A stretch of DNA of 64,000 bases from Hydrogenobaculum sp. 3684 (GTDB lineage: Bacteria > Aquificota > Aquificia > Aquificales > Aquificaceae), in NCBI RefSeq assembly GCF_000213785.1, contig NC_015557.1, forward strand, positions 1,344,664-1,408,663, written 5' to 3'. The translations under genes were made by a program, and so were the position numbers. Shown here piece after piece: positions 4,590 through 62,396 of this stretch. The notes under the pieces are model-generated. The model was not told the origin of the DNA, searched no databases, and saw only the letters and a program-made list of their open reading frames with translations. Each line of letters begins with the position of its first letter. Position 1 is the first letter of the stretch.

Positions 4590-4595
4590 TATAAT
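4590..4595 (+). promoter_or_regulatory. -10 box of polX, leaderless spacing
   Basis: A perfect TATAAT ends 7 nt before the polX ATG and no Shine-Dalgarno sequence lies between. Transcription would begin at or next to the start codon. Confidence 0.6.
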
Positions 4596-4602
4596 ACATC
4601 TT

Positions 4603-6333
4603 ATGGCATCCACTAAGGATATAGCAAAACTCTTTAAAGAGATGGCTCTGGCGGCGGAGTTTTTGGGGGAGAACAAGTTTAGAGTTTTGGCTTATCAGAA
4701 AGTAGCAGATATTCTTTTTGAAATAGACAAAGATATAAAAAGTGTAGATGAGCTAAAAGAATACCTTAGCTCAAACCAAATACACGGTATAGGGGAATCC
4801 TCTTTAGAAAAGATAGAAGAGTATTTAAAAACTGGTCGTATAAAAAAGCACGATGAGTTTTTGCAAAAAGTCCCAAAAGAACTTCTTGATATAATGGATG
4901 CTCCTGGTATTGGGCCCAAGACTCTTAAGACTCTTTACGATGTTTTTGGCATAAAAAACAAGGAAGAACTTTTAAAAGCTTTAGACGATCCACGTATAAA
5001 AACCATAAAAGGCTTTGGCCCCAAAAAAATAGAAAATATAAAAAGAGGTATAGCTCTTTTTGAACAATCAAAAGAGAGGATGTTTATAACAGAAGCCTAT
5101 TCTTTGGCTCAAGATATACTTAACTACATGAAAGGTTGTAAAGAGATAATAAATATATCTGTGGCTGGTTCTTTAAGACGCATGAAAGAAACTATAGGTG
5201 ATATAGATATACTGGTGTCTGCCAAAAAAGAGGATTTTCCAAAAATTCATGAGTATTTTAAAGCTTATAAAGATATAGAGCAAGTTATTGGAAGCGGTGA
5301 AACAAAGACATCTATTCTTCTTAAAAACTCAAAACAAGTGGATTTAAGGGTTTTAAAAGAAGAAGAATGGGGTTCTGGTCTTCAATATTTTACAGGTTCT
5401 AAAGAGCACAACGTAAGGATAAGGGATATCGCCAAAGAAAAAGGTTATAAGATAAGCGAATACGGTATTTTTGAAATATCTTCTGGTAAAAGGCTTGGGG
5501 GTGAAAAAGAAGAAGATATTTACAACATCTTGGGTATGGTGATGCCTCCACCTGAGATAAGAGAAGATAAAGGTGAGATTGAACTTGCCATGCAAGGCAA
5601 AGTACCAGAGCTAGTGGATTATGATGATATAAAAGGCGATTTTCATATGCATACCACATACTCAGATGGTAAAGCTTCTTTAAGACAGATGGTGCAAACA
5701 TGCTACGAACTTGGATATAAATATATCGTCATATCAGATCATACCAAATCCCTAAGAGTGGCAGGCGGTTTAGATGAAGAGGGCTTTAGGAATCAGTGGA
5801 AAGAGATAGAACAGATCCAAAAAGAGTACAAAGGTATGACTATACTAAGAGGCTGTGAGGTGGATATATTAGAAGATGGATCTTTAGATTTGCCAGATAG
5901 CTTTTTAGAGGAGTTTGACTATGTAGTAGCTTCTATCCACTCTCACATGTCGCCTAGCACTGATAATACAAAACGCATAATAAAAGCTTGCCACAACAAA
6001 TATGTAAATCAAATAGGGCATCCCACTGGTAAAAATTACGGTTATAGAGATGGATACATACTAAATATGGAAGAGGTGATAAAAGCAGCCCTTGATACCA
6101 ACACGGCGTTAGAATTAAACATTCCAAGGGCAGATTTATCCCCAGACAACATAAGGCTTGCAGTAGAAAGAGGGGTAACGATAAGCATAGTAACGGATTC
6201 TCATTCCTCTTCTCATCTTCAGTTTATGAAAGTAGGGGTTGGGCTTGCAAGAAGAGGTTGGGCTTTGAAAGAACGGGTTTTAAACACAAAGCCACTACAA
6301 GAGGTAAGAGCGTTTGTCCGAAAAAAGCGCTAA
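4603..6333 (+). CDS. polX: Family X DNA polymerase with C-terminal PHP domain
   Basis: A 576-residue bacterial PolX, involved in gap-filling base-excision repair. The N-terminal half has helix-hairpin-helix elements (GIGESSLEKI near 66, APGIGPKTL near 105, IKGFGPKKI near 140). It is followed by the nucleotidyltransferase core, with a GS motif near 187 and GDIDILV carrying two catalytic aspartates. From about residue 345 a PHP phosphoesterase domain follows (FHMHTTYSDG, VISDHT, GCEVDIL, SIHSHM, IGHPTG, TDSHSS). These hold the metal-binding His/Asp residues, so a 3'-5' exonuclease or phosphatase activity is expected. The length is normal. The downstream gene overlaps its last 20 bases. Confidence 0.93.
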   Translation: MASTKDIAKLFKEMALAAEFLGENKFRVLAYQKVADILFEIDKDIKSVDELKEYLSSNQIHGIGESSLEKIEEYLKTGRIKKHDEFLQKVPKELLDIMDAPGIGPKTLKTLYDVFGIKNKEELLKALDDPRIKTIKGFGPKKIENIKRGIALFEQSKERMFITEAYSLAQDILNYMKGCKEIINISVAGSLRRMKETIGDIDILVSAKKEDFPKIHEYFKAYKDIEQVIGSGETKTSILLKNSKQVDLRVLKEEEWGSGLQYFTGSKEHNVRIRDIAKEKGYKISEYGIFEISSGKRLGGEKEEDIYNILGMVMPPPEIREDKGEIELAMQGKVPELVDYDDIKGDFHMHTTYSDGKASLRQMVQTCYELGYKYIVISDHTKSLRVAGGLDEEGFRNQWKEIEQIQKEYKGMTILRGCEVDILEDGSLDLPDSFLEEFDYVVASIHSHMSPSTDNTKRIIKACHNKYVNQIGHPTGKNYGYRDGYILNMEEVIKAALDTNTALELNIPRADLSPDNIRLAVERGVTISIVTDSHSSSHLQFMKVGVGLARRGWALKERVLNTKPLQEVRAFVRKKR

Positions 6334-8779
6334 GGTGCTTTTGCTTCCACCAAACGCAGATTTAGACGCTTTAAGCTCTATATACGGTATATCGCTTTTA
6401 GAAAAAGATGCAAAACTTTTTTACACATCTTTTAGTCCAAAAGCCAGAAAACTCTTTGAAGATATAAAAGATAGATTTAATATTTTAAAATCTTTAGAGG
6501 GGCTAGAAAATATACATATTTTTACAGTGGATTATTCATCTATAGATTTTGTTTTTGGGCTTTTAAAAAAAGAAAAGATTAAAAAAATAACGCTGTTTGA
6601 TCATCACATAAGACACATAGAAAAAGAACTACTTGTGGAAGCTTACATAGATGAAACTCTTGGGGCTTGTACTACGCTTATAGTAGAGCATCTTATAAAA
6701 AAAGATGTATCTATATCAAAAGAAGATGCATCTGTCTTGCTTTGCGGTATATACGACGATACAAACTATTTTTCCATAAAAGATATAAGCCCAAGGGATT
6801 TTGAAGTGGCTTCTTATCTTATAAAGATGGGCGGGGATATAGAATTTGTAAACAAATATGTAAAATATTATATAAGCCTAAAAGATTTGATTCATGTAGA
6901 AGAATATCTAAAGAGTTTGGAGATTTTAAATATAAATGGCAAAAAGATAGGTTTTATAGTGCTTGACACTACTCAAGAAAGTGTAATTGAGAGTTTAAGA
7001 GATGTAAAGGAGCTTGAAAACCTTGATGCTTATTTTATCATCATGTCTTCTTCTATAAATACCTATGTGGTAGCACGCTCAAAAACTATAGATGTAGAAC
7101 GCATTTTATCAAAATTAGGAGGGGGTGGTCATACGCTTGCCTCTGGTTTAAAACTAAACTTTGTATCTTCTAAAAAATTAAAAAGTATCATTTTAGAGCT
7201 TTTAAAAGAAGAAAACCCAAAGATAACCCTAAAAGATATTATGACAAAACACCCGCTTACCCTAAAAAAAGATATGAGCGTAGAAGAGGCTTTTTATACA
7301 CTTTCAAACTTCAAGATCTCAAAAGCCCCAGTTTTAGATGAGAATGAACATGTGATAGGTGCCATTACCAAAAAGATATTGGCAAAAGCTTTGGATATCT
7401 CAAAAGATAGCAAAGTACAAGAGCTTTTGGTAAGTATACCGCTTTTAAAAGAGGATGATTTTATTTGGGAAGCTGAAAAAGTGTTTTTAGAAAACCCTTT
7501 GGCACCTATGATAGGGGTATTGGACAAAGAGGGAAAGTTGGTGGGTATAATAACAAAATCAGATCTTATAAGACATATCACCGAAGATGAAGAACGCAAT
7601 ATTTCCACAAAGCATATAAATATACCATCTTATATGATAGATATCATTATTGATATTAAAAACTTTATACCAAAAGGTGAAAAGCTTTATTTAGTAGGTG
7701 GTGTGGTAAGAGATATCATTTTAAATAGACCTTCTTACGATATTGATTTTGTTTTTGAAGGGGATATAGACCTATTAGAGCAAAGCTTAAAATCTCATGG
7801 TATAAAAACCCATAGATTTCTTGGTTTTAACAGCGTTCATTTTAAGTACAAGGGTTTTAAAATAGAAATCTCAAGCACTAGAAGAGAGTATTATGAGATG
7901 GCAGGTTCTTACCCGGTGGTGTCAAAAGCCTCTTTAAAAGAGGATTTGTTTAGAAGAGATTTTACTATAAATACGCTTCTTCTTTCTCTTGATGAAAAAG
8001 ATTTTGGCACTGTGATAGATTATTTTGGAGCTTTAAACGATATAAAGAATAAGATTATAAGGGTTTTACACCCACTTAGTTTTATAGAAGACCCAGTTAG
8101 GATATTAAGAGCCATAAGATTTGAGGCCAAACTAAACTTCAAACTTTCAAAAGACACCAAAAGACTTTTAGAAGAGGCTTTACAAAAAGGTATGCTAAAA
8201 TACGCTCCAAAAGGAAGAATATTCAACGAACTAAAAATAGCCCTTCAAGAAAAAGAGTTTGAAAACATTTTTGAAACTTACAAAAAATACGGCATCATAG
8301 AATCGTTGTTTGAATACAAACCAGATTATATTTATATAGAAGAAAAATCTAAAAACCTAAAGATGTTTTCTGATTGGTATTTGTTGGAGTACAAAACCCC
8401 TTTTAAAGAGGCCTCTTGGATATTTTTTTGGCTTTTGATAAAAAACGCCCCTTCTTTAGAAGAGATTTTAAAAGCTATAAGCGCCCCGGCATTTATTTAC
8501 AGATTTCTTGAGATCAATATAAAACACATTATATCAGAGATTTTAAAAGCCAAAAAACCATCGGAACTATACAAGATATTAAAGCCCTTTGGCTTGGAGG
8601 AATTAGCCCTTTTTGCCACCGAGGGAAACGTAGATGTTATGAACCGTATAGTAAAATATCTTTCTCATCTTAAAAACCTAAAACCAAATATAGATATAAG
8701 CTCTATACCACCAGCGGATCGTTCTAAAGTTATTGAAGAATCAAAATTAATTGAGATGGACAAAATTTATAGTCTATGA
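6314..8779 (+). CDS. DHH phosphoesterase / CBS pair / poly(A) polymerase-head fusion (tRNA CCA-adding type)
   Basis: An 821-residue fusion. It has a DHH phosphoesterase domain (LFDHHIRH near residue 96), a DHHA1 segment with GGGGHTLASG, then a CBS pair (about 310-430). Last comes a class II nucleotidyltransferase head (LVGGVVRDIIL near 460, then YDIDFVFEGD), with the tRNA-binding arm after it. Aquifex splits CCA addition into CC-adding and A-adding enzymes, and long proteins of this architecture belong to that group; I cannot tell which nucleotide this one adds. The TTG at 6314 overlaps polX; a GTG at 6335 just after the polX stop is an alternative start. tRNA genes follow directly. Confidence 0.82.
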   Translation: MSEKSAKVLLLPPNADLDALSSIYGISLLEKDAKLFYTSFSPKARKLFEDIKDRFNILKSLEGLENIHIFTVDYSSIDFVFGLLKKEKIKKITLFDHHIRHIEKELLVEAYIDETLGACTTLIVEHLIKKDVSISKEDASVLLCGIYDDTNYFSIKDISPRDFEVASYLIKMGGDIEFVNKYVKYYISLKDLIHVEEYLKSLEILNINGKKIGFIVLDTTQESVIESLRDVKELENLDAYFIIMSSSINTYVVARSKTIDVERILSKLGGGGHTLASGLKLNFVSSKKLKSIILELLKEENPKITLKDIMTKHPLTLKKDMSVEEAFYTLSNFKISKAPVLDENEHVIGAITKKILAKALDISKDSKVQELLVSIPLLKEDDFIWEAEKVFLENPLAPMIGVLDKEGKLVGIITKSDLIRHITEDEERNISTKHINIPSYMIDIIIDIKNFIPKGEKLYLVGGVVRDIILNRPSYDIDFVFEGDIDLLEQSLKSHGIKTHRFLGFNSVHFKYKGFKIEISSTRREYYEMAGSYPVVSKASLKEDLFRRDFTINTLLLSLDEKDFGTVIDYFGALNDIKNKIIRVLHPLSFIEDPVRILRAIRFEAKLNFKLSKDTKRLLEEALQKGMLKYAPKGRIFNELKIALQEKEFENIFETYKKYGIIESLFEYKPDYIYIEEKSKNLKMFSDWYLLEYKTPFKEASWIFFWLLIKNAPSLEEILKAISAPAFIYRFLEINIKHIISEILKAKKPSELYKILKPFGLEELALFATEGNVDVMNRIVKYLSHLKNLKPNIDISSIPPADRSKVIEESKLIEMDKIYSL

Positions 8780-8785
8780 TATAAT
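8757..8785 (+). promoter_or_regulatory. tRNA-Asp promoter
   Basis: TGGACA (8757-8762), a 17-nt spacer and a perfect TATAAT (8780-8785) lie 12 nt before tRNA-Asp. The promoter overlaps the end of the preceding coding region. Confidence 0.7.
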
Positions 8786-8797
8786 ATTTAGATGGCT

Positions 8798-8875
<78 letters not shown>

Positions 8876-8892
8876 TCTTCTTAATTAACGTA

Positions 8893-8964
8893 GGGCCTGT
8901 AGCTCAAAGGCAGAGCAGACGGCTCATAACCGTCCGGTTGGAGGTTCGAGTCCTTCCAGGCCCA
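8893..8964 (+). tRNA. tRNA with CAT anticodon (elongator tRNA-Met or tRNA-Ile2)
   Basis: Acceptor GGGCCTG/CAGGCCC, anticodon stem GACGG/CCGTC around loop CTCATAA, T loop TTCGAGT, discriminator A. CCA is not encoded. An elongator Met tRNA and a lysidine-modified Ile tRNA cannot be told apart by eye. It is not the initiator type, since the first acceptor pair is G-C and the anticodon stem lacks three G-C pairs. It lies 17 nt after tRNA-Asp and is probably cotranscribed with it. Confidence 0.9.
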
Positions 8965-9057
8965 TGCTTTTTCTCATATTATCTAACTGACAATTTCATT
9001 TTATTTTTGTAGTTTTTATACTTTTTATTTGGCTTTTAACATGATAAACTTAAAAAT

Positions 9058-10131
9058 ATGAAAGAAAATCTATTTACTCCATTAGAGCTTAGGTCTTTGG
9101 TGCTTAGAAACCGTATTGTTATGTCCCCTATGTGCATGTATTCTTCAGAAGATGGCTTTGTAAAGGATTTTCACATAGCTCATTATGGTTCAAGAGCAGC
9201 TGGGGGCACTGGTCTTATTTTTACAGAAGCTTGTGCTGTATCTCCTGAGGGTGTTATATCAAAACAAGACCTTGGTATATACAAAGATGAGCATATAGAA
9301 GGTTTAAAGCGTATAGTGGATATATGTCATAGCTTTGGAGCAAAAGTAGGTATACAGCTAGCTCACGCTGGTAGAAAAGCTTTTGGAGGAAGACCCTGGG
9401 ATAATCTTCAGAGGTTTGGTTATGATGAGCTTGATTTAATAGCACCAAGCCCAATAGCCTTTGGTCCTAATTGGAAAACTCCCAAAGAGATGACCAAAGA
9501 AGATATAAAAAATATTGTAGAAAAGTTTGTAAAAGCTACACAAAGAGCTTTAAAAGCTGGTTTTGATGTGATAGAAATCCATGCGGCCCACGGATATCTT
9601 TTAAACGAGTTCTTATCACCTATTACAAACAAACGAACAGATGAATACGGTGGTACTTTTGAAAACCGTATTAGGCTTTTAATAGAGATAACAGAAGCTA
9701 TAAGAAGCATTGTACCCGGCGAGATGCCACTTTTTGTCAGGATATCGGTAGTGGATCACGTGGATGGTGGATGGGATTTGGAAGATTCTATAGCACTTTC
9801 TAAAATCCTAAAAACCAAAGGCGTTGATGTGATAGACTGCTCTTCTGGTGGGATAGCCTTTGGAGTACCACCAAACGATTATTACAGAGCCCATCAGATA
9901 GTATTTGCTGAAACCATCAAAAAAGAAGTGGGTATAAAAACGATGGCGGTGGGTGGTATCACATCCTTTGATATGGCAAACGAGATTATAAAAAACAAAA
10001 GAGCAGACCTTGTGGCTATAGCTCGTCTTTTCTTGCAAGAGCCATATCTTCCTATAAAATGGGCTATGTCAAGAAACATCAAGATAGATATTCCAAATCA
10101 GTATCAAAGAGGATATTATCTGGATGTTTGA
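9058..10131 (+). CDS. namA: Old Yellow Enzyme, NADPH/NADH:flavin oxidoreductase (YqjM class)
   Basis: A 357-residue FMN-dependent ene-reductase of the TIM-barrel OYE family. Cys26 and Tyr28 (PMCMYS) are at exactly the positions typical of the YqjM/thermophilic-like class. The pair of substrate-binding histidines appears in IHAAHGYLLNEFLSP (about residues 172-175). RTDEYGG and the C-terminal AIARLFLQEP FMN-phosphate region are present. The physiological substrate is unknown; the family reduces activated alkenes and nitro compounds. There is no obvious Shine-Dalgarno; a TAAACT hexamer ends 7 nt upstream of the ATG. Confidence 0.92.
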   Translation: MKENLFTPLELRSLVLRNRIVMSPMCMYSSEDGFVKDFHIAHYGSRAAGGTGLIFTEACAVSPEGVISKQDLGIYKDEHIEGLKRIVDICHSFGAKVGIQLAHAGRKAFGGRPWDNLQRFGYDELDLIAPSPIAFGPNWKTPKEMTKEDIKNIVEKFVKATQRALKAGFDVIEIHAAHGYLLNEFLSPITNKRTDEYGGTFENRIRLLIEITEAIRSIVPGEMPLFVRISVVDHVDGGWDLEDSIALSKILKTKGVDVIDCSSGGIAFGVPPNDYYRAHQIVFAETIKKEVGIKTMAVGGITSFDMANEIIKNKRADLVAIARLFLQEPYLPIKWAMSRNIKIDIPNQYQRGYYLDV

Positions 10132-10244
10132 TATAATTTTCTAAAATATAAATCTTAAACACATAAACTATGGCAGACTTACTTGTCTGAAAAGTGTTTT
10201 TACTACTCTGTATTCCTATCCTATCTCTATTTATATCGTTATGT

Positions 10245-10250
10245 TAAAAT
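10245..10250 (+). promoter_or_regulatory. -10 box of the diguanylate cyclase gene, leaderless spacing
   Basis: TAAAAT ends 7 nt before ATG 10258, with no Shine-Dalgarno sequence. This supports the ATG at 10258 over upstream in-frame starts. Confidence 0.5.
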
Positions 10251-10257
10251 ATTATCC

Positions 10258-13714: not shown

Positions 13715-13720
13715 TAAAAT
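13715..13720 (+). promoter_or_regulatory. -10 box of purB, leaderless spacing
   Basis: TAAAAT ends 7 nt before the purB ATG; no Shine-Dalgarno sequence precedes the start. Confidence 0.5.
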
Positions 13721-13727
13721 ATTTTGT

Positions 13728-16506: not shown

Positions 16507-16512
16507 ATTATA
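16507..16512 (-). promoter_or_regulatory. -10 box of era, leaderless spacing
   Basis: TATAAT preceded by TGA (extended -10 like) ends 6 nt before the era ATG; no Shine-Dalgarno sequence is present. Confidence 0.6.
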
Positions 16513-17832: not shown

Positions 17833-17838
17833 TATAAT
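17833..17838 (+). promoter_or_regulatory. -10 box of the thioredoxin reductase-like gene
   Basis: TATAAT lies 28 nt before the ATG and AGGAG lies between, giving an ordinary leadered mRNA. The 182-nt gap here holds divergent promoters for this gene and the hemerythrin gene; I see nothing else in it. Confidence 0.6.
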
Positions 17839-17866
17839 ATTTATTTAACTTTTTAGGAGTGAAAAT

Positions 17867-24628: not shown

Positions 24629-24634
24629 TACAAT
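24629..24634 (+). promoter_or_regulatory. -10 box of the epimerase gene, leaderless spacing
   Basis: TACAAT ends 6 nt before the epimerase ATG and overlaps the end of the channel gene. Confidence 0.5.
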
Positions 24635-28762: not shown

Positions 28763-28789
28763 TGTAATATCCTGTATAATTTTTATAGG

Positions 28790-29581
28790 ATGAATATACT
28801 AGCTATTGGGGATGTGATAGGAAGAACTGGTAGAAGGGTTTTAAAATCAATATTGCCGCATGTTTTGAAAGAATATGAAGTAGATTTTGTGCTTTTAAAT
28901 TGTGAAAATGCAGCTGGTGGTTTTGGTATAACTTTAAAGGTTTATGAAGAGCTAAAAGCCCTTGGGGTAGATGTGTTTACCTCTGGAAATCACATATGGG
29001 ACAATAAAGAGGTTTTTAGCTTTATAGATCAAAAAGAAGACATATTAAGACCAGCAAACTACCCAGATGGGGTGCCAGGTAGAGGTTTTGGTATTTTTAA
29101 TAAAAACCAAAAACAAATTCTTGTGTTAAACCTTATGGGTAGAGTTTTTATGGGAAATCCAGCGTTAGAAAATCCTTTTTTTGTGGCAAAAGATATACTC
29201 TCTAAGTATTATTTTGACATAGCTATAATAGATTTTCACGCAGAAGCCACTGCCGAAAAATACGCTTTTGCCCTTTACATAGAAAACGAGTTTAAAGATG
29301 TGGCCAACAAGATATTTATTTACGGTACTCATACGCATGTGCCTACCGCTGACGCTTTTTTATTTCCATCTGGTATGGCATATGTAACAGATATAGGAAT
29401 AACTGGAGCTTGGCATAGTATAATAGGTACAGAGTACGCAGCTATTACAAAATACCTAAACGGCATCCCGGCAAGGTTTGAAGTGGATAAATCTCAAGGT
29501 ATATTTAACGCAATCTTATTAAAAGCCGAAGGTACGATAGAATCTATAAATAGGCTACAAATATTTGAAGATGTAATATAA
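28790..29581 (+). CDS. ymdB: YmdB-family metallophosphoesterase
   Basis: 263 residues from ATG 28790, where the family sequence MNILAIGDVIGRTGRR begins. Metal ligands include GD near residue 8, NCENAAGG (Asn-Glu), TSGNHIWDNKEV (Asn-His), the IDFHAEATAEK His and GTHTHVPTAD (His-x-His). Bacillus YmdB is a 2',3'/3',5'-cyclic nucleotide phosphodiesterase affecting biofilm and motility. A TATAAT at 28775-28780 lies 9 nt before the start, with a weak TAGGA. Confidence 0.92.
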   Translation: MNILAIGDVIGRTGRRVLKSILPHVLKEYEVDFVLLNCENAAGGFGITLKVYEELKALGVDVFTSGNHIWDNKEVFSFIDQKEDILRPANYPDGVPGRGFGIFNKNQKQILVLNLMGRVFMGNPALENPFFVAKDILSKYYFDIAIIDFHAEATAEKYAFALYIENEFKDVANKIFIYGTHTHVPTADAFLFPSGMAYVTDIGITGAWHSIIGTEYAAITKYLNGIPARFEVDKSQGIFNAILLKAEGTIESINRLQIFEDVI

Positions 29582-29588
29582 TAATTAA

Positions 29589-30320
29589 ATGCCAAACGTT
29601 TTTGAAATAGATATAAAAGAGGTCGTTGCAAAATTACAAAAGGGTAAGGAGTACAATATATATACTGTGTATAGAGATGTACCTATCAACATAAAGGTGC
29701 CCTTTTCTTGGTTTGACATTTCTAAAACTAACGAGGTTTATTTGGCTTTTAATTGGAAAAATACATCTATGAAGTATGCTTTTCAAACTGGAAACCCAGT
29801 GTATGTGAAGATTGTTATACCATACCAAAGTAGAGAACTCTCTTTTTATATAAAATGTAGCGTTTTTTCAAGTGCTAGAGATGAGCTTGTGCTTATGGCA
29901 GAATCCTTAATAGATGTACCGCCATTTTTAAAAAGATCGAGCGTAAGGGTGGAGTTTGATTATAAGCATAAAGCTTATGCAAAGTTGTGCCTTGAGGACT
30001 TGGACGAATGTTTTTCAAACCTATCGTTAAAAAATATTAGCGAAACTGGTTTTGCTATAAAAATAGAAAAAGATGAAAACAAAGATATGATATTGGGTAA
30101 GATGAAAGATTTGGCAAGCAAAGATACTGTTTTTGATGTGGAGCTTTATATAGATGGCGATATCGTTAGGGGTAAGGCTAATCTAGTAAGTATATACGAA
30201 GAACAAGATGAGTTATACGCTGGCTTTAAGATGTCTGTGGATAAAAAAGACGCTGCAAAGCTAAGCTCTATCATTATGAAGCTTCAACAAGAGATAATTC
30301 AAGAGATAAAATCTCTATGA
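29589..30320 (+). CDS. PilZ-domain c-di-GMP receptor
   Basis: 243 residues. The first 110 form a beta-rich YcgR-N/PilZN-like domain. The PilZ domain begins with RSSVR (RxxxR, about residue 115) and continues with NISETG (N/DxSxxG, about 150), so both c-di-GMP-binding motifs are intact. It is coupled to the lipoprotein gene by an ATGA overlap. With the diguanylate cyclase at 10.3 kb and flagellar genes at 38.7 kb, a role in motility or surface attachment is likely. Confidence 0.88.
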   Translation: MPNVFEIDIKEVVAKLQKGKEYNIYTVYRDVPINIKVPFSWFDISKTNEVYLAFNWKNTSMKYAFQTGNPVYVKIVIPYQSRELSFYIKCSVFSSARDELVLMAESLIDVPPFLKRSSVRVEFDYKHKAYAKLCLEDLDECFSNLSLKNISETGFAIKIEKDENKDMILGKMKDLASKDTVFDVELYIDGDIVRGKANLVSIYEEQDELYAGFKMSVDKKDAAKLSSIIMKLQQEIIQEIKSL

Positions 30321-32941: not shown

Positions 32942-32947
32942 TATATT
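32942..32947 (+). promoter_or_regulatory. -10 box of trpG, leaderless spacing
   Basis: TATATT ends 6 nt before the trpG ATG; there is no Shine-Dalgarno sequence. Confidence 0.45.
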
Positions 32948-35826: not shown

Positions 35827-35837
35827 TATAATATAAT
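35827..35837 (+). promoter_or_regulatory. Overlapping -10 boxes of the ferredoxin gene
   Basis: TATAATATAAT contains two TATAAT copies, ending 10 and 5 nt before the ATG; either would give a very short or absent leader. Confidence 0.5.
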
Positions 35838-37725: not shown

Positions 37726-37731
37726 TATAAT
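37726..37731 (+). promoter_or_regulatory. -10 box of nth, leaderless spacing
   Basis: A perfect TATAAT, preceded by CTG, ends 6 nt before the nth ATG; no Shine-Dalgarno sequence. Confidence 0.6.
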
Positions 37732-50837: not shown

Positions 50838-50843
50838 ATTATA
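50838..50843 (-). promoter_or_regulatory. -10 box of def, leaderless spacing
   Basis: TATAAT ends 6 nt before the def ATG; no Shine-Dalgarno sequence. Confidence 0.6.
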
Positions 50844-54543: not shown

Positions 54544-54549
54544 AGTTTT

Positions 54550-54555
54550 ATTATA
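54550..54555 (-). promoter_or_regulatory. -10 box of the AMMECR1 gene, leaderless spacing
   Basis: TATAAT preceded by TGT (extended -10 like) ends 6 nt before the ATG; no Shine-Dalgarno sequence. Confidence 0.6.
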
Positions 54556-54582
54556 ACACTTAACAGGTGCTTAAAGTTTTTA

Positions 54583-54588: not shown

Positions 54589-54594
54589 AAAATT

Positions 54595-54780
54595 ATGCTT
54601 GTGATGATATTGTGGCTTTTATCTTTGGTGATACTTGTTTTTGGGATTTTAGGGATATTGGGGAAATTGTTTGGAAGTCATAAAGCCAATACGCTAAAAG
54701 CTCTAAACGACAAATATTTAAGAGGGGAAATATCAAAAGAAGAGTACGAACAGGCCAAAAGGGTGTTGGAAAACCTTTGA
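54595..54780 (+). CDS. Small membrane protein with SHOCT domain
   Basis: 61 residues: one N-terminal membrane helix (about 3-26), then a SHOCT motif (NTLKALNDKYLRGEISKEEYEQAKRVLENL) at the C-terminus, the usual place. SHOCT domains are thought to mediate oligomerisation or interaction. The start is supported by the -10 box 6 nt upstream. Confidence 0.75.
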   Translation: MLVMILWLLSLVILVFGILGILGKLFGSHKANTLKALNDKYLRGEISKEEYEQAKRVLENL

Positions 54781-54785
54781 TGTGA

Positions 54786-54791
54786 TATAAT
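54786..54791 (+). promoter_or_regulatory. -10 box of metE
   Basis: TGATATAAT (extended -10) lies 27 nt before the metE ATG, with AGGAGG at 54809-54814: a leadered transcript. The leader is too short for a riboswitch. Confidence 0.6.
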
Positions 54792-54818
54792 AATGTATTT
54801 AAATATTTAGGAGGTATT

Positions 54819-57086
54819 ATGAAAGCACTGGCGTATGGTTATCCAAAATTAGGTGAAAAAAGAGAGTTTAAAAATGCCCTTGAAAGCTTTTGGAAAAAAG
54901 CTATAACAGAAGAACAGTTTTACGAGCAGATGAGAAACATCGAAGCCCAAAGGATAAGAGCTTATTCAGAGAGCGTTGATGAAATCCCTGTGGGAGAGCT
55001 TTCTTTTTACGATTTTATGTTAGATACCGCTCTTATGGTGGGTATGATACCATCTCGCTTCGGTGAGTACAAAGGGCTTGAAACCTATTTTGAAATGGCT
55101 CGTGGCAAATCTGCCATGGAGATGACAAAGTATTTTAACACAAACTATCATTATATAGTCCCGGAGTTAGAATCAAACAATTTTAAGCTTTTAGAAAATA
55201 AACCCAAAAGATGCTATTTAAACGCCAAAGACAAAGTCCAAAACCCAAAACCATACCTAATAGCCCCCTTTACATTTTTAAAACTATCAAAAACCTATAA
55301 AAAAACCACAAAAGATGGTTTTAGTGTTTTGGAAACCTCAAAAATAGAGGATGAGAAAACCCTTTATTACTTTTTAGAACCTCTTTTGGAAGTGTATAAA
55401 GATATTCTTAAAAACCTAAAAACAGAAGGTGTAAATATCGTTTCTTTACAAGACCCAGGCCTAGTGTTTGATCTGAAAGATTATGAAGTAAATGCCGTCA
55501 AAAAAATATACGAGGAGTTAAGTCAAGTATCAGATATAGAGCTAATCACGTATTACGATAGTGTTAGTGCTTATAAAGATATTATAGATTTACCTGTAAA
55601 ACGTATAGGGCTTGATCTTTGCTCAAACGCTGAAAACCTTGAAAACCTTAGAAAATACGGCTTTCCAAAGGACAAAGAGCTTATAGCTGGTATTATAAAC
55701 GGCCGTCAAGTATGGAGAGCAAACCTAAGAGATAAGTTAAAGCTAATAGATGAGCTTTCAAAAATAGCACCAAATTTATCTATTTCAAACTCTGCTCCTC
55801 TTTTACATCTTCCAGTAAATGTTGAGCTTGAAACAAAGATGGACAAAGATCTAAAAGATAGACTTAGCTTTGCCAAGCAAAAGCTTGAAGAACTAAAAAC
55901 CCTCAAAAACGCCTTCTTAGGGGACAAAGAAAGTCTAAAAGAAGTAGAGGCTTCAGCCAAACTTTTTGAAGGAAGCTTTGGTAAAAATCAAGCCGTGATA
56001 GATCGTATAAAAGCTCTAAAAGATAGTGATTTTCAAAGAGAACTTCCTTACAAAGAGCGTATAAAACTCCAGCAAAGCATACTAAACTTGCCTATTTTCC
56101 CCACCACCACCATAGGGTCTTTCCCTCAAACCGAAGAGGTGCGTAAAACCAGAAGCGCTTTTAGATCTGGCAAAATTTCAAAGCAAGAGTATGAGGCTTT
56201 TATTAAAAGCCAGATAGACAACGTCATAGCCTTCCAAGAGGAAATAGGACTTGATGTGCTTGTACATGGGGAGTTTGAGCGTACAGATATGGTGGAGTTT
56301 TTTGCCGAGAAGTTAAAAGGTGTTGCCACCACAGAGCACGGCTGGATCATCTCTTACGGTTCAAGAGGCTATAGACCACCTATCATATACGGCGATGTTT
56401 ACAGAGATGAGCCGATGACACTAAATGAAATACTCTATGCTCAATCAAAAACCCAAAAACCTGTAAAAGGCATGCTAACTGGTCCTGTTACTATACTAAA
56501 TTGGAGCTTTTATAGAGAGGATATACCAAAAAAAGAGGTGGCTTACCAGATAGCCTTAGCTATATTAGACGAGGTAAAAGACTTAGAAAAAAGCGGTATA
56601 AAGATAATACAAATAGACGAACCAGCTTTTAGAGAAGGTACACCCATAAAGAAAAAAGACTGGGAAGATTATTTTGATTGGGCTATAAAATCTTTTAGAC
56701 TGTGCTCAAAAGCAAATCCAAAAACCCAAATACACACTCACATGTGCTACTCAGAGTTTAACGATATCATAGACAAAATATACGATATGGATTTTGATGT
56801 GATATCCATAGAGGCTTCAAGAAGTAAAGGTGAGATTTTAGAGGCTTTTGAGAGATTTGGGAAATGGGACAGACAAATAGGTATAGGTGTGTACGATATT
56901 CACTCGCCAGCTATTCCAAGCGTAGAAGAGATGGAAATTGTGATGAAAAGAGCTATGAAGGTTTTAGATAAATCCCTTTTATGGGTAAACCCTGATTGTG
57001 GTCTTAAAACCAGAAGATGGGAAGAGGTAAAACCAGCCTTAAAAAATATGATGGAAATGGCTTTAAAGCTAAGAAAAGAGGCCTAA
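54819..57086 (+). CDS. metE: Cobalamin-independent methionine synthase
   Basis: A 755-residue two-barrel enzyme that transfers methyl from 5-methyltetrahydropteroyl-triglutamate to homocysteine. Zinc ligands His641 and Cys643 ([10 protein letters not shown]) and Cys727 (NPDCGLKTR) are present. The [10 protein letters not shown] start of the C-terminal barrel is near 428. [11 protein letters not shown] and the N-terminal [12 protein letters not shown] are family hallmarks. Length and spacing match the Escherichia coli enzyme. Confidence 0.96.
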
Positions 57087-57096
57087 ATTTTATCTG

Positions 57097-58035
57097 ATGT
57101 CAAAAACTGCGGTAGTGCTTTTAAATATGGGCGGACCGGATTCCATGTCCGCCATTCGCCCTTTTTTGTACAATTTATTTTCCGATCACGATATCATACA
57201 AATCCCAAGACCCATTCAAAAACCAGTGGCTTTTTTCATATCTACATTTAGAGCCAAAAAAACAGAGTATTACTATAAGATAATGGGCGGTAAATCCCCT
57301 CAGAAAGAGCAAACCATTCTTCAAAAAAACGCCCTCCAGCAAGCTTTAGGTCAAGATTATATCGTTGAAATAGCGATGAGATATTGGCATCCTTTTACCG
57401 CTGAGGCTATATCAAACTTAGAAAAGGTAAAACCTTCAAAGATAGTGCTTTTACCCCTTTATCCACATTATAGTTCCACCACCACAGGTTCTTCTTTTAA
57501 AGAGTTTTATAGGCTTTTTAAAAAATCAAGTTTAAAAGACACACCTGTAAAAGAGATAAGAGATTATCACAATCATCCGCTTTTTATAAAAGCCTGGACA
57601 GAAAATATTAAAAACAGCGGTATAGACGATGAATATTTTATACTCTTTTCAGCCCATAGCCTGCCTCAAAAGATAATAGACAAAGGAGACCCTTACAAAG
57701 ATCAGATAGAAAAATCTGTAGAGCTTATTATGAAAAACTTTAAAAACAAATATATGATCTCTTATCAAAGCAAAGTAGGGCCAGTGAAGTGGTTAGAGCC
57801 CCCCACCGATAAGACCATAGAAAACTTGGCAAAGCAAGGTATAAAAAAACTTTGCCTCGTGCCTATAAGCTTTGTATCAGAGCATTCAGAAACCCTTTAC
57901 GAGATGGACTACCTTTATAAAAACATGGCTAAAGAACTTGGTATAGAACACTTTAAAAGAGTACCTACCTTGCAGACAAACCCCACTTATATTGAGCTTT
58001 TAAAAGAACTATCCACCAAAGCCTTTGCCACATAA
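57097..58035 (+). CDS. hemH: Ferrochelatase
   Basis: A 312-residue enzyme that inserts Fe2+ into protoporphyrin IX. LLNMGGPD is at the N-terminus. PLYPHYSSTTTGSS (near 128), the metal-site His in FSAHSLPQ (near 188) and the Glu/His in FVSEHSETLYEMD (near 268) are intact. The start is 10 nt after metE. Its last 49 bases overlap the end of the PAP2 gene on the other strand. Confidence 0.94.
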   Translation: MSKTAVVLLNMGGPDSMSAIRPFLYNLFSDHDIIQIPRPIQKPVAFFISTFRAKKTEYYYKIMGGKSPQKEQTILQKNALQQALGQDYIVEIAMRYWHPFTAEAISNLEKVKPSKIVLLPLYPHYSSTTTGSSFKEFYRLFKKSSLKDTPVKEIRDYHNHPLFIKAWTENIKNSGIDDEYFILFSAHSLPQKIIDKGDPYKDQIEKSVELIMKNFKNKYMISYQSKVGPVKWLEPPTDKTIENLAKQGIKKLCLVPISFVSEHSETLYEMDYLYKNMAKELGIEHFKRVPTLQTNPTYIELLKELSTKAFAT

Positions 58036-58511
58036 AAACTAAATACCCCTATCAAAGCACCCGTGATGGTGTCAAGAGGAAAATGAACCCCTACGTAAGA
58101 CCTTTCATACATTATTAAAAAAGCGTAAGAAAAGAAAAATGCTTTCACAAGAGGTTTTTCGTTGTAAGAACCCACCATGGCTATCACAAAAGCCATAGCA
58201 GTGTCCCCAGAGGGAAAAGATCCCCAATAGAGTTTATAAAGAAGATGAACATGTTTTAAAACACTTGCTGGTCTTGGCTGATCAAAGATGTTTTTTAAGG
58301 CCGTCACAAGTATTGTCTCTATGATAAGAGCCACAAGATAAACCTTTAACTTGTATCTTCTAAATGTATATATGTAAGCTAAAAAAGGTAAAAGCACCCA
58401 ACCAGAACCAAAAGATGCATATGTATAAAAAAATCTATCAAAAAATTTATCGTGATGATGGTTTATTAGATTAAAAAGTTCTATGTTTTCTTTGAAAAGC
58501 TCAAAAACCAT
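57987..58511 (-). CDS. PAP2-family membrane phosphatase
   Basis: 174 residues with five or six membrane helices. Phosphatase motifs: KNIFDQPRP (C1, near 68), FPSGDTA (C2, near 95) and RSYVGVHFPLD (C3, near 138), which keeps the nucleophile His. C2 has Asp where most family members have His (PSGH). It may dephosphorylate undecaprenyl pyrophosphate or lipid A. The C-terminal 16 codons lie antisense to the end of hemH. Confidence 0.85.
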   Translation of the reverse strand: MVFELFKENIELFNLINHHHDKFFDRFFYTYASFGSGWVLLPFLAYIYTFRRYKLKVYLVALIIETILVTALKNIFDQPRPASVLKHVHLLYKLYWGSFPSGDTAMAFVIAMVGSYNEKPLVKAFFFSYAFLIMYERSYVGVHFPLDTITGALIGVFSFYVAKALVDSSFKSSI

Positions 58512-58513
58512 TT

Positions 58514-59422
58514 TTAATAAAATTTTTTAACTTGATTTAGATAACCCATTGCAAACTCTTTTCCGCTTACCCTTTTTCCTTTTAAAGACATAATCTCTAA
58601 AATCTCCAAAGGTAAATCTCCAGTGCCTACAAAAAGAGATTTCCCATCGTAAAAAAGCTCACCGGGTTTTAAATTTAGATCTTTTTCTACGATATTTGTT
58701 TTTAGGATTTTAATATTGCGATCGGCTGAAACCCCGTAGGCGTTTGGATATACACCTCTTATCTTGTTGTGTATGCTAAAAGCACTTGTTTTAAAACATA
58801 TTCTTAGCTCTTCTTTTAAAATAGGCATAGCGTATGTGGCTTCTTGGTGATTTTGAGGAATAGGCGTTATTTTACCACTTACCCAGTTTAAAATAGTATC
58901 TTTTAAAAGCTTTGCACCTTTTATAGATAGTTTGTTAGATAGCGTTTCATAATTATCCTCTTGTTCTATAGGTATAGACTCCATAGATAAAATATCTCCC
59001 TCATCCATTTTAGAAGACATCAAAATCACTGTGTTGCCCGTTTGTTTTTCTCCCTGCATCAAAGCCCGTTGGATTGGGGCTGCTCCTCTATACTTTGGAA
59101 GCAAGGACCCGTGAAGGTTTAGCGATTTAAACGTTGGTATTTCAAGCATGGATTTTGGTATTATCTGCCCGTAAGCCACCACTATCATGATGTCTGGTTT
59201 TATATTTAAAAGCTCTTGTTTTATAAAAGAGATTTTTTCTGGCTGGGAGATGTTTAAATTTAGCTCGAGGGCTTTTTGCTTTACAGGAGGGGGCGTGAGT
59301 TTTTGACCTCTTCCAGCTGGTTTATCTGGTTGGGTGATTACAAGGGCTATTTCAAACTCACTGGCTAAAAGCTCCAAAGAGGGCACCGCAAAAGAAGAGG
59401 TACCGCAAAATACTATCCTCAT
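58514..59422 (-). CDS. fmt: Methionyl-tRNA formyltransferase
   Basis: 302 residues from ATG 59422, which overlaps the ubiX stop as ATGA; an in-frame ATG four codons upstream precedes the conserved start [16 protein letters not shown] and is less likely. HGSLLPKYRGAAPIQ (near 107) holds the catalytic His and N10-formyl-THF site, and the C-terminal domain is present. It formylates initiator Met-tRNA. It ends 2 nt before the PAP2 start. Confidence 0.95.
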   Translation of the reverse strand: MRIVFCGTSSFAVPSLELLASEFEIALVITQPDKPAGRGQKLTPPPVKQKALELNLNISQPEKISFIKQELLNIKPDIMIVVAYGQIIPKSMLEIPTFKSLNLHGSLLPKYRGAAPIQRALMQGEKQTGNTVILMSSKMDEGDILSMESIPIEQEDNYETLSNKLSIKGAKLLKDTILNWVSGKITPIPQNHQEATYAMPILKEELRICFKTSAFSIHNKIRGVYPNAYGVSADRNIKILKTNIVEKDLNLKPGELFYDGKSLFVGTGDLPLEILEIMSLKGKRVSGKEFAMGYLNQVKKFY

Positions 59423-59982
59423 GAGGATTTCCACCTTTTGTAGATGTTGTGATCTATCCTTAGGGTATCTAAAACTTTTCCCACTACAAAGTCTATACTT
59501 TCTTCTAAGGTTTTTGGCTTATGATAAAAACCAGGGCTTGCGCTCATTATGATGGCACCGGCGTTTGTTAGTTTTAGCATGTTCTCAAGGTGTATACTGT
59601 TGTAAGGCATCTCTCTTACAAGCATAACAAGAGGTACTCTCTCTTTTAGAGCTGTATCGCATACTCTGTGAATGAGATTTTGGGCAACACCGCTTGCCAC
59701 AGCTCCCAAAGTCCCCATAGAACAAGGCACCACCAAAACTCCTTTAAACTTGCATAAAAAAGACCCGCTTGATATAGGAGCTGCAAAATCTGTATAATCG
59801 TAAACATGGGCTTCTTTTTTAAAAAACTCCTCACCGACTCCTGTTTCATAACCCATTACGTACTTGGCGGTTTTTGACATCACCACATGTAGATCGTAGC
59901 GTTCTTTTAGCACTTCAAAAGTCCTAACAGCGTAAATACTGCCACTGGCACCGGTGATAAGAAGGGCAATAGATTCTTTCAT
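59419..59982 (-). CDS. ubiX: Flavin prenyltransferase UbiX
   Basis: 187 residues. [12 protein letters not shown] at the N-terminus, [13 protein letters not shown] (near 91) and the [20 protein letters not shown] region are typical. It makes the prenylated FMN used by UbiD-type decarboxylases in quinone synthesis; no ubiD is in the window. Both ends overlap neighbours by 4 bp (cmk-ubiX-fmt). Confidence 0.94.
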
Positions 59983-60608
59983 AAAACCTTTTTAATATAC
60001 TCCATACAAAGATTTATTACCTCTTCTTTTGTCATACAAGTGGTATCTATTTGTATGGCATCTTCTGCTTTTCTAAAAGGATAATCTTTTCTGTTTTTAT
60101 CGGTTTCATCTCGTTTTAGGATTTTATTTAAAATATCCTCATAAGACCCACCTTCTTCCAAATATCTTCTTAATGCTCTTTCTTTTGGATCTGCGTCTAT
60201 AAAAAACTTTATCGTGGCATCTTTAAATATGTGAGTACCAACATCCCTTCCTTCTACAACGGCGTTATCTTTTACCAAAGACCTTTGAAACACGATTATC
60301 TTTTCCCTTAAACTTGGTTCTTTTGCCACCTCTGACGCTAAAGCCCCTACATATTCTTTTGTAAGTTCTTTTGTTATATCATCATGATCAAAAATTACTT
60401 TTGTTTGTCCTATTAAAAGCTCAAAAACAAGTCTATTTTTTTCTACAGCATCAAAAAAATCTATATTTTTTGATTTTAAAAAACCAATGGCCCTATAAAC
60501 AAGACCTGTATTGAAATAAACATATCCCAAAATCTTAGAAAGCTCCCGCGATACGCTTGATTTACCACTGGAAGCTGGTCCATCTATAGCTATAATTTTA
60601 TAGTTCAC
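59979..60608 (-). CDS. cmk: Cytidylate kinase
   Basis: A 209-residue NMP kinase that phosphorylates CMP and dCMP. The P loop [16 protein letters not shown] is near residue 8, [11 protein letters not shown] is near 122 and the LID region [11 protein letters not shown] is present. The start is GTG at 60608. No ATG is available and the -10 box lies 6 nt upstream, which supports this start. Confidence 0.94.
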
Positions 60609-60614
60609 CTAAAT

Positions 60615-60620
60615 ATTATA
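60615..60620 (-). promoter_or_regulatory. -10 box of cmk, leaderless spacing
   Basis: TATAAT ends 6 nt before the GTG start of cmk; AGG directly abuts the GTG and is too close to act as a normal Shine-Dalgarno. Confidence 0.55.
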
Positions 60621-60643
60621 CATTAAAGCTTAAGTTTAATAAA

Positions 60644-60665
60644 AAGGCCCTAAGCCTAGGGCCTT
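60644..60665 (-). terminator. Rho-independent terminator after the CDGSH/interrupted-gene unit
   Basis: A perfect 9-bp stem (60644-60652 with 60657-60665, 4-nt loop, GGCCCTA core) is followed on the minus strand by TTTATT, extending the T run to five with the stem end. It separates this unit from the cmk promoter. Confidence 0.85.
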
Positions 60666-60671
60666 GCATGT

Positions 60672-60875
60672 TTATTTTAACTCGCCTTCCCAGTATTCGA
60701 TGGCACCAGATATATTTTCAGAGTTTTGTTTTAGGTTATCATACATTGCCTTCATAAAACGCTCACAGCCTTCCACTGGAGCATGCTTTGCTACGTTTTC
60801 AATGTCTTTTAAAAGCTCGTCGTTTTAGGCTTCTATGTAAGCTTTCACTTTTTGTCTGTCAAACTCTTGATCCAT
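60672..60875 (-). pseudogene. Small gene interrupted by one in-frame stop codon
   Basis: Reading the minus strand from ATG 60875 gives 16 codons (MDQEFDRQKVKAYIEA), a TAA at 60825-60827, then 50 more in-frame codons (NDELLKDIENVAKHAPVEGC, ending IEYWEGELK) to a TAA at 60672-60674. The reading frame on both sides of the stop looks like one helical protein of about 67 residues. AAGGAGGG lies 5 nt upstream of the ATG, and a strong terminator follows the second stop. The 3' part has no good start of its own. I do not recognise the family. It is either a recent nonsense mutation or a sequencing error. Confidence 0.7.
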
Positions 60876-60885
60876 AAATCCCTCC

Positions 60886-61074
60886 TTATGTTAATTCTAT
60901 CCTTTCGTTTTCACCGTATATATAAAGCTTTCCTTCAGCTTCGTCTTGGGTCTTTTTGTGAGATCCATCGCAAAATGGAAAACCCTTTGACAGTCCACAC
61001 GTGCAAACCCATTTTTCTTCTTGGGCTTTTACCTGTATAGGTCCTTTGCCACTTAACTTGACAAGTCTTGCCAT
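60886..61074 (-). CDS. CDGSH iron-sulfur domain protein
   Basis: 62 residues with one complete CDGSH motif: CTCGLSKGFPFCDGSH (about residues 24-39), whose three Cys and one His bind a [2Fe-2S] cluster. No membrane anchor is present. AGGAGG precedes the ATG. The interrupted gene starts 10 nt after its stop. Bacterial members are small electron- or cluster-transfer proteins of unclear role. Confidence 0.9.
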   Translation of the reverse strand: MARLVKLSGKGPIQVKAQEEKWVCTCGLSKGFPFCDGSHKKTQDEAEGKLYIYGENERIELT

Positions 61075-61107
61075 AGGTTAAACCTCCTTTGGTTTTTTGA
61101 TAGTTTT

Positions 61108-61136
61108 ATATTAAAGTGTATAGTTTATCTTGTCAA
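61108..61136 (-). promoter_or_regulatory. Promoter of the CDGSH unit
   Basis: Consensus TTGACA (61136-61131), a 17-nt spacer and TAATAT (61113-61108), then a 33-nt leader with AGGAGG at 61083-61088. Confidence 0.65.
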
Positions 61137-61181
61137 GTAGGCACTTTATAGTGAGTAAGTATATAAAAGTATACTTCCTCT

Positions 61182-62384
61182 TTATACAAAAACAGTTTCT
61201 GGTATACCAAAACCGTTGAAGTTGGCAGCATAAACCGTAGTGTAAGCACCCGTTGCCATTATATATATTCTATCGCCTACATCCACATCTGGAAGATATG
61301 TGAAATTTGATATGATATCCATGCTGTCGCAACTAACCCCAGCTATGGTGTAGGGTTTTATCTCGCCTTTTTGTTCAGCATACATAGGATAGCTTATACC
61401 CCCTAAAACTTCCGCAAGCCCGTTAAATACCCCAGTATCTAAGTAAATCCAGTAAGATTCTTCACCGTTTATATATTTTGTGGTTTTACCTATCACAGAA
61501 CTAACCAACACGCCCGCATCTCCTACAAGCCCTCTTCCTGGTTCTATTTGTATTTCCATAGGCTTTATAAGAAAATACTTTTGCAAAAGCGCCTCTATGT
61601 AAGAGCCAATATCTCTTATGCTAAGGGATTCGTATTGATAGTTTACGGGGATACCGCCACCTAAATTTAGCATTGTAAGTTTTATATCTTTGTATATGGC
61701 TTTTTCCCAAAGCTCCCAAGCTTTTTTTATACCTATAAACCAATTTCTTAGATTGTTGCATTGAGAACCCACATGAAATGTAATACCATAAGGCACAAGC
61801 CCTTGGTATTTTGCATACTCAAGAATATCTAAAGCGGTATCTACATCAACGCCAAATTTGTTGGTAAGAGGCCAATCGCTTCCTTCGTTTGGTACTATTA
61901 GCCTTACGTATACTCTTGATCTTGGAGCTATCTTTTTTAACTTATCTATTTCTTTGTATGAATCTATGCTAAAAGCTTTAATACCAGATTTATAAGCGTA
62001 ATCTATAAAATCTAATGGTTTTACCGGGTTGCTAGATATAATTCTTGAACCATCTACTCCAAGTCTTAAGACTTTTTCCAGTTCCCAGGAAGAAGCCACT
62101 TCATAACCACTGCCAAGGTAATTTAGCAAAGCCAATATTTCTTGATGATCGTTTGCTTTTACCGCATAATATATCTTTGCTTCTTTTAAAGCCTCTTGTA
62201 GTTCTATAAACCTCTCTTTTATTCTGTCTAAGTTTATGACTAGAGTCGGGGTTTTTACGCTTTTAAGAACGTCCAATATAAAGGGTTTTCTTAATACTAT
62301 GCTATCAAAATATTGCTTTGCAAACTTATACTGCAAAGGATATACATCCGGTACCTCTTCAGCTTCCAAAACTTTTTCTGGCAT
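61182..62384 (-). CDS. Ornithine/lysine decarboxylase-like PLP enzyme (fold III)
   Basis: A 400-residue alanine-racemase-fold decarboxylase. The PLP Lys lies in YAVKAND (near 72), HVGSQC near 207, the phosphate loop GGGIPV near 245, EPGRGLVGDAG near 285 and GVSCDSMD near 350. The catalytic Cys-Asp of eukaryotic-type ornithine decarboxylase corresponds to CDSMD. An extra 45-residue N-terminus precedes the barrel. It probably makes putrescine or cadaverine for polyamines, which matter in thermophiles; DapDC-type (LysA) activity is less likely. Confidence 0.85.
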   Translation of the reverse strand: MPEKVLEAEEVPDVYPLQYKFAKQYFDSIVLRKPFILDVLKSVKTPTLVINLDRIKERFIELQEALKEAKIYYAVKANDHQEILALLNYLGSGYEVASSWELEKVLRLGVDGSRIISSNPVKPLDFIDYAYKSGIKAFSIDSYKEIDKLKKIAPRSRVYVRLIVPNEGSDWPLTNKFGVDVDTALDILEYAKYQGLVPYGITFHVGSQCNNLRNWFIGIKKAWELWEKAIYKDIKLTMLNLGGGIPVNYQYESLSIRDIGSYIEALLQKYFLIKPMEIQIEPGRGLVGDAGVLVSSVIGKTTKYINGEESYWIYLDTGVFNGLAEVLGGISYPMYAEQKGEIKPYTIAGVSCDSMDIISNFTYLPDVDVGDRIYIMATGAYTTVYAANFNGFGIPETVFV

Positions 62385-62390
62385 AAGATT

Positions 62391-62396
62391 AGTATA
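62391..62396 (-). promoter_or_regulatory. -10 box of the decarboxylase gene, leaderless spacing
   Basis: TATACT ends 6 nt before the ATG; an overlapping TATTAT would give 9 nt. No Shine-Dalgarno sequence. Confidence 0.45.

What the first reader, a model, noticed from the sequence alone, without database searches (positions are those of the whole stretch)
4590..62396. Systematic TATAAT-N6/7-start codon signature: predicted leaderless mRNAs in about a dozen operons
The last base of a TATAAT-like hexamer lies 6-7 nt before the start codon, with no Shine-Dalgarno sequence, at polX, the diguanylate cyclase, purB, era, the epimerase, trpG, nth, def, the AMMECR1 gene, the SHOCT gene, cmk (GTG start) and the decarboxylase. 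The ferredoxin gene is similar at 5 nt. Since transcription starts about 7 nt after the -10, the mRNA would begin at the start codon. Several copies have TG just upstream (extended -10 like), and -35 boxes are poor. Genes with AGGAGG (korA, metE, CDGSH, outer-membrane protein) have their -10 18-35 nt away, so the two classes are distinct. Leaderless initiation on this scale is not a standard feature of this phylum as far as I know.
Basis: partly seen in the sequence, partly recalled or inferred. Interest (0 to 1): 0.75.

Follow-up and report, generated by a model that had tools for sequence, protein, structure and literature searches.

The report
Leaderless genes in Hydrogenobaculum and relatives
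Many genes of this hot-spring bacterium have a promoter box placed so close to the start codon that the messenger RNA should begin at the start codon itself; the pattern is real and shared by every Aquificaceae genome sampled, but it was already reported for the phylum in 2011.

Summary
The window lies in a Hydrogenobaculum genome (Aquificota). All 12 named genes, plus the ferredoxin gene at 5 nt, carry a TATAAT-like -10 box at the stated distance (7 exact, 5 with one mismatch). In 464 kb of this genome (364 genes), TATAAT peaks sharply at 6 nt before the start codon: 18 versus 0.74 expected, P = 3e-19. It is the top hexamer there. In-frame internal starts show no such peak. Strong Shine-Dalgarno (SD) genes have their -10 boxes mostly 15-35 nt upstream. 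Extended -10 (TGn) is enriched and -35 is not. TTG starts are nearly absent from the class. The hexamer and its spacing are conserved among Hydrogenobaculum species.

The leaderless interpretation is the best one, but no RNA 5' ends could be examined. The claim that this is unusual for the phylum is wrong: Zheng et al. 2011 (PMC3160421) reported such genes in 2 of 5 Aquificae genomes (20.7-32.4% of genes), with the same geometry. My sampling adds a family boundary: all seven Aquificaceae genomes have the peak; three Hydrogenothermaceae-like genomes, one Desulfurobacteriaceae-like genome and a small sample of a fifth family lack it; one sister family is unclear.

The parts
4590..4595 (+). TATAAT -10 box, 7 nt before ATG 4603 of polX
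   Evidence: conserved in the Hydrogenobaculum relative G003; start supported by NCBIfam PolX profile, residue 3 to model position 3.
10245..10250 (+). TAAAAT -10 box with TGn, 7 nt before ATG 10258 of a GGDEF (diguanylate cyclase) gene
   Evidence: GGDEF domain; box and spacing kept in G003 although most of the upstream sequence differs.
13715..13720 (+). TAAAAT -10 box with TGn, 7 nt before ATG 13728 of purB
   Evidence: profile 1-to-1 at the N-terminus; conserved in three other Hydrogenobaculum genomes.
16507..16512 (-). TATAAT extended -10 box (TGaTATAAT), 6 nt before ATG 16500 of era
   Evidence: N-terminus 1-to-1 with the Era profile; box and spacing kept in G001, G003, G004 and UBA2488 while flanks diverge.
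24629..24634 (+). TACAAT extended -10 box, 6 nt before ATG 24641 of an NAD-dependent epimerase
   Evidence: start consistent with profiles; TAGAAT at the same place in G003 and PNJC.
28775..28780 (+). TATAAT 9 nt before ATG 28790 of a YmdB-like gene, just after tRNA-Leu (weaker, possible member)
   Evidence: YmdB profile starts at residue 4; conserved in G003.
29577..29582 (+). TATAAT -10 box, 6 nt before ATG 29589 of a gene with no Pfam domain found (243 aa)
   Evidence: no Pfam family at E<=0.001; conserved in G003.
32942..32947 (+). TATATT -10-like box, 6 nt before ATG 32954 of trpG
   Evidence: start consistent with TrpG profiles; conserved in G003.
35832..35837 (+). TATAAT 5 nt before ATG 35843 of a 4Fe-4S ferredoxin gene; an overlapping TATAAT lies at 10 nt
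   Evidence: Fer4 domains; identical in G003.
37726..37731 (+). TATAAT -10 box, 6 nt before ATG 37738 of nth
   Evidence: residue 7 to model position 4; present in G003 with a one-base longer spacer.
50838..50843 (-). TATAAT -10 box, 6 nt before ATG 50831 of def
   Evidence: profile 1-to-1; conserved in G003.
54550..54555 (-). TATAAT -10 box, 6 nt before ATG 54543 of the AMMECR1 gene
   Evidence: AMMECR1 domain; kept in G003 although the sequence further upstream differs.
60615..60620 (-). TATAAT -10 box, 6 nt before GTG 60608 of cmk
   Evidence: residue 4 to model position 3 of cmk.
62391..62396 (-). TATACT -10-like box, 6 nt before ATG 62384 of a LysA-like decarboxylase; start codon not validated
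   Evidence: profile begins only at residue 37.
54786..54814 (+). contrast class: metE, TATAAT 27 nt before the start followed by AGGAGG 4 nt before ATG 54819
   Evidence: both elements conserved in G003.
   Evidence: conserved in G003.
17833..17866 (+). contrast class: trxB-like gene, TATAAT 28 nt before ATG 17867 with AGGAG between
   Evidence: conserved in G003 and PNJC.
8780..8785 (+). TATAAT of the predicted tRNA-Asp promoter (-35 TGGACA, 17-nt spacer); a non-coding instance of TATAAT-N6-ATG
   Evidence: (11 of 12 matches), tRNA-Asp at 8798.

Best explanation
These are housekeeping (sigma-70 type) promoters, often of the extended -10 kind, whose -10 box is fixed 6-8 nt before the start codon. 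RNA polymerase starts at the A (or G) of the start codon, so the mRNA has no leader and no Shine-Dalgarno sequence. The ribosome must then engage the 5'-terminal AUG/GUG directly, as on known bacterial leaderless mRNAs. In this genome this mode serves roughly 15-30% of genes and a larger share of first genes of transcription units, beside a second class with a -10 box 15-35 nt upstream and a strong SD. Shown: motif, spacing, specificity, validated starts, conservation and taxonomic spread. Inferred: the exact transcription start, and translation of the leaderless mRNA.
For: Peak at 6 nt with TATAAT the top hexamer. Excess of boxes at 5-11 nt: 93 versus 31.3 expected, P = 4e-19, equal to 17% of all genes and 26% of leading genes. 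Two-motif EM without a fixed position learns TGNTATAAT at 6-7 nt and AAGGAGG as separate classes, about 31% and 36% of genes; among leading genes 41% TA versus 27% SD. TGn before the box: 22/63 versus 7/109 in far-upstream controls, P = 3e-6; -35 not enriched. Start codons at the 6-8 nt class: 58 ATG, 4 GTG, 1 TTG, against 55 TTG in 300 other genes, P = 2e-4. Strong-SD genes: 0 of 57 have the box at 5-9 nt; their nearest cluster of boxes is at 15-29 nt. N-termini match curated profiles. Hexamer conserved in 24 of 25 orthologue comparisons and spacer without gap in 24 of 25; era and AMMECR1 keep box and spacing while flanks diverge. Same geometry as published TA-led leaderless genes.
Against: No RNA 5' ends were available. 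SD absence in the class is partly forced, because the box occupies the place where an SD would lie. A pyrimidine at -1, expected for a start at A(+1), is not more frequent than in SD genes in Hydrogenobaculum (0.70 versus 0.72), though it is in the five other Aquificaceae genomes (0.83 versus 0.58, P = 1e-5). TTG depletion against strong-SD genes alone is only P = 0.054 in this genome. Some boxes lie at 9-11 nt, which would allow leaders of a few nucleotides. Gene starts came from a simple caller, not curated annotation.
Confidence: 0.9

Rival explanations
1. Very short leaders rather than strictly leaderless: transcription begins 1-5 nt before the start codon, still too short for an SD.
For: Boxes at 8-11 nt exist (11, 9, 7 and 8 genes with <=1 mismatch at 8, 9, 10 and 11 nt against about 4.5 background), and other Aquificaceae centre on 7-9 nt.
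Against: In Hydrogenobaculum the mode is exactly 6 nt, which puts +1 on the start codon at the usual -10 to +1 spacing.
Confidence: 0.2
2. The box is a real -10, but the true protein start is a later codon, so the mRNA has a normal leader and the called start is wrong.
For: The decarboxylase N-terminus extends about 20 residues beyond its profile.
Against: polX, purB, era, epimerase, trpG, nth, def and cmk align with curated profiles from residues 1-7; era aligns from residue 1 or 2 in relatives. A misplaced start would not give a sharp 6-nt peak.
Confidence: 0.04
3. An AU-rich translation-enhancing element on longer mRNAs, not a promoter.
For: AU-rich stretches upstream of non-SD starts can aid ribosome binding (general knowledge); Nakagawa et al. 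2017 note U/A bias near -10 in Aquificae non-SD genes.
Against: The enrichment is for TATAAT and TAAAAT in one register, with TGn before it. Equally AT-rich Hydrogenothermaceae-like and Desulfurobacteriaceae-like genomes show no excess there.
Confidence: 0.03
4. Chance in an AT-rich genome.
For: TATAAT is common at 35% GC; one exact TATAAT-N6-ATG precedes a tRNA gene and two are not at gene starts.
Against: P = 3e-19 at 6 nt; no peak at internal starts; no peak in AT-rich control genomes.
Confidence: 0.001

Closest known systems
TA-led leaderless genes of bacteria as defined by Zheng et al. 2011 (PMC3160421), with Aquifex aeolicus VF5 as an example genome
   Same: TAtaaT box about 12 bp before the start codon counted from its first T (here 6 + 6 = 12), no SD, tens of percent of genes, coexisting with SD-led genes; same phylum.
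   Different: Hydrogenobaculum is not named in the main text; here the spacing mode is tighter (6 nt) than in the Aquifex-sized genome (7-8 nt), with clear TGn enrichment.
Leaderless transcripts of Mycobacterium (mapped by RNA-seq, e.g. PMC3898074, PMC4633059, titles and abstracts only seen) and of Deinococcus-Thermus
   Same: From general knowledge: -10 box directly upstream of the start codon; ATG and GTG starts.
   Different: High-GC genomes with a TANNNT box; here a low-GC thermophile with near-consensus TATAAT; no 5'-end map for this genus was found.
Lactococcus-type leaderless promoters with a TG peak (Zheng et al. 2011, described in text)
   Same: AT-rich genome with a TG peak before the box and little role for -35.
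   Different: Much lower fraction of leaderless genes in Firmicutes (average 4.2% in that survey).

Membership tests
TA-led leaderless genes (Zheng et al. 2011) | TATAAT-like signal enriched at a fixed position about 12 bp (first T) before the translation start | tested here: met
TA-led leaderless genes (Zheng et al. 2011) | No Shine-Dalgarno sequence at these starts while other genes have one | tested here: met
   0/63 versus 95/300; partly forced because the box overlaps the SD position.
TA-led leaderless genes (Zheng et al. 2011) | A substantial fraction of genes in the genome | tested here: met
   17% excess by count, about 31% by EM; published Aquificae range 20.7-32.4%.
TA-led leaderless genes (Zheng et al. 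2011) | Enriched at first genes of transcription units | tested here: met
   TA class 41% of leading versus 17% of closely following genes.
Leaderless mRNA, sensu stricto | Primary 5' end at the first base of the start codon | not testable with these tools
   No RNA data; no 5'-end study of Hydrogenobaculum found.
Leaderless mRNA, sensu stricto | Translation from the 5'-terminal AUG/GUG | not testable with these tools
   Needs ribosome profiling, toeprinting or N-terminal peptides.
Sigma-70 extended -10 promoter | TGn directly upstream of the -10 box, weak -35 | tested here: met
   22/63 versus 7/109, P = 3e-6; -35 mean 2.78 versus 2.69 matches. Holds for about a third of the class.

The most novel reading that the evidence does not exclude
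Leaderless initiation is a main mode of de novo initiation in one family (Aquificaceae), present in every genus sampled, and absent from the other families of the phylum that gave a clear answer. It would then have been gained or lost once at that level without loss of ribosomal protein S1, making the phylum a clean natural comparison of the two initiation modes.
Probability: 0.6. Interest if true: 0.4.

Novelty: already known. Interest (0 to 1): 0.22.

Why it matters
It confirms, in a genome not named in the earlier main text, that a thermophilic bacterial family uses leaderless genes widely, so gene callers that expect an SD will misjudge starts here. The boundary between Aquificaceae and the other families, which are also thermophiles and in several cases have the same or lower GC, argues against heat or AT-richness alone as the cause and offers a tractable comparison. 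Otherwise it is an ordinary feature of this lineage.

Tried and rejected
The genome-contig search for era found only close relatives. Loss of ribosomal protein S1 as a cause: rejected, S1 domains occur in all nine genomes tested and this genome encodes an S1-like protein of about 533 residues with several S1 domains. Pyrimidine at -1 as proof of the start site: not discriminating in this genus. EM on the f3 genomes and E. coli yields no TATAAT-like class at a fixed distance, so their EM 'TA' weights are noise. The sister family f2: TATAAT-like excess 9 versus 3.7 (P = 0.014) and a weak TTAAA signal at 10-13 nt; left undecided. Literature searches for a mapped 5'-end set in Aquifex or Hydrogenobaculum found none in the open library.

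Full report
Where the window lies. It is G000:C1:1344664-1408663 of a single-contig genome of 1,552,775 bp, 35% GC. Its Era protein is 97% and 95% identical to Era of two Hydrogenobaculum sp. assemblies, so the genome is Hydrogenobaculum, family Aquificaceae, phylum Aquificota. These identities, and the family names given to f3 and f4, are recalled from size, not tested.

The observation in the window. Every named gene has the box at the stated distance: exact TATAAT at polX (7 nt), era, the gene at 29589, nth, def, AMMECR1 and cmk (6 nt); one mismatch at the GGDEF gene and purB (7 nt), the epimerase, trpG and the decarboxylase (6 nt). The ferredoxin gene has it at 5 nt and an overlapping copy at 10 nt. 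TATAAT-N6-ATG occurs 8 times, 1.79 expected; N7 gives 3 and N12 gives 1, both near chance. Thirteen of 53 called genes carry the box at 6-8 nt against 1.65 expected, P = 2e-8. Curated profiles support the start codons of polX, purB, era, epimerase, trpG, nth, def and cmk; the decarboxylase start is not supported, and no SHOCT domain was found in the 29589 gene.

Genome scale. I took 20 stretches of 20 kb, called genes with a simple codon model that ignores upstream motifs, and counted the distance from box to start. Exact TATAAT at 6 nt: 18 of 363 genes, 0.74 expected, P = 3e-19, the most enriched hexamer at that position. With one mismatch: 35 at 6 nt, 17 at 7, 11 at 8, background 4.5. The excess at 5-11 nt equals 17% of all genes and 26% of leading genes. 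A two-motif EM without a fixed position finds TGNTATAAT at 6-7 nt (about 31% of genes) and AAGGAGG (36%); among leading genes 41% are of the first kind and 27% of the second. The EM figure is an upper estimate because it absorbs weak matches.

Anatomy. TG stands one base before the box in 22 of 63 cases against 7 of 109 for boxes far upstream (P = 3e-6), while -35 matches are at control level. Starts in the class are 58 ATG, 4 GTG and 1 TTG; other genes have 55 TTG in 300 (P = 2e-4), consistent with a purine at +1. No gene of the class has an SD, but that is partly forced by overlap. Strong-SD genes have no box at 5-9 nt and their boxes concentrate at 15-35 nt, most clearly in the five other Aquificaceae genomes (26 boxes at 20-24 nt among 217 genes).

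Conservation. Among Hydrogenobaculum genomes the box persists in 24 of 25 orthologue comparisons, with no spacer gap in 24 of 25; identity over -12 to -7 is 0.98 against 0.82 at -24 to -19. At era the sequence upstream in G004 and in UBA2488 is unrelated, yet TGATATAAT and the 6-nt spacing remain; AMMECR1 in G003 shows the same. In other genera era varies: the Aquifex-sized genome has GGAGG instead.

Distribution. The 5-11 nt excess is present in all seven Aquificaceae genomes (P from 3.5e-6 to 4e-19) and absent from three f3 genomes, one f4 genome, a 60-kb sample of f5, and an E. coli control (100 kb), although several of these are as AT-rich as Hydrogenobaculum. One sister family, f2, is undecided. 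Ribosomal protein S1 domains are present throughout.

What is known. Zheng et al. 2011 (PMC3160421) surveyed 953 bacterial genomes and reported TA-led leaderless genes in 2 of 5 Aquificae genomes at 20.7-32.4% of genes, with Aquifex aeolicus shown as an example and the box about 12 bp before the start, the same as 6 + 6 here. My family split fits their 2 of 5, but their list of which genomes was not read. Nakagawa et al. 2017 (PMC5397173) note U/A bias near -10 in non-SD Aquificae genes. The claim of novelty for the phylum therefore fails.

Verdict. A real, strongly supported leaderless-gene signature, already reported for this phylum. The step from sequence to leaderless mRNA stays an inference until 5' ends are mapped.

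Noticed in passing
L036:17822-17844 (G000 about 837,822-837,844): Two divergent genes have start codons only 23 bp apart; one 8-bp palindrome ATTATAAT supplies both -10 boxes (7 and 8 nt from the two ATGs). The arrangement is kept in G001, G003 and apparently G004. If both mRNAs are leaderless, this is a minimal two-way promoter.
   Followed up: partly
L109:16680-16740 (G003 era, about 1,370,690): era of G003 differs by a one-base deletion relative to this genome, splitting the frame of a normally essential GTPase; a sequencing error or a real frameshift.
   Followed up: partly
L112-L122 (family f2, pooled MAGs): Few SD sequences (28%) and a weak TTAAA-like signal 10-13 nt before starts; possibly leaderless or short-leader genes with another -10 form.
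   Followed up: partly
window 8757-8798: Near-perfect sigma-70 promoter (TGGACA-17-TATAAT) before tRNA-Asp; its TATAAT-N6-ATG is a non-coding look-alike of the leaderless signature.
   Followed up: yes
L043:2006 and L043:6876: Two copies of a gene with identical upstream -10 and identical first 25 residues (MDQQNRHPQDIDITIKNIILPLLES), possibly a mobile-element family carrying its own leaderless promoter.
   Followed up: no
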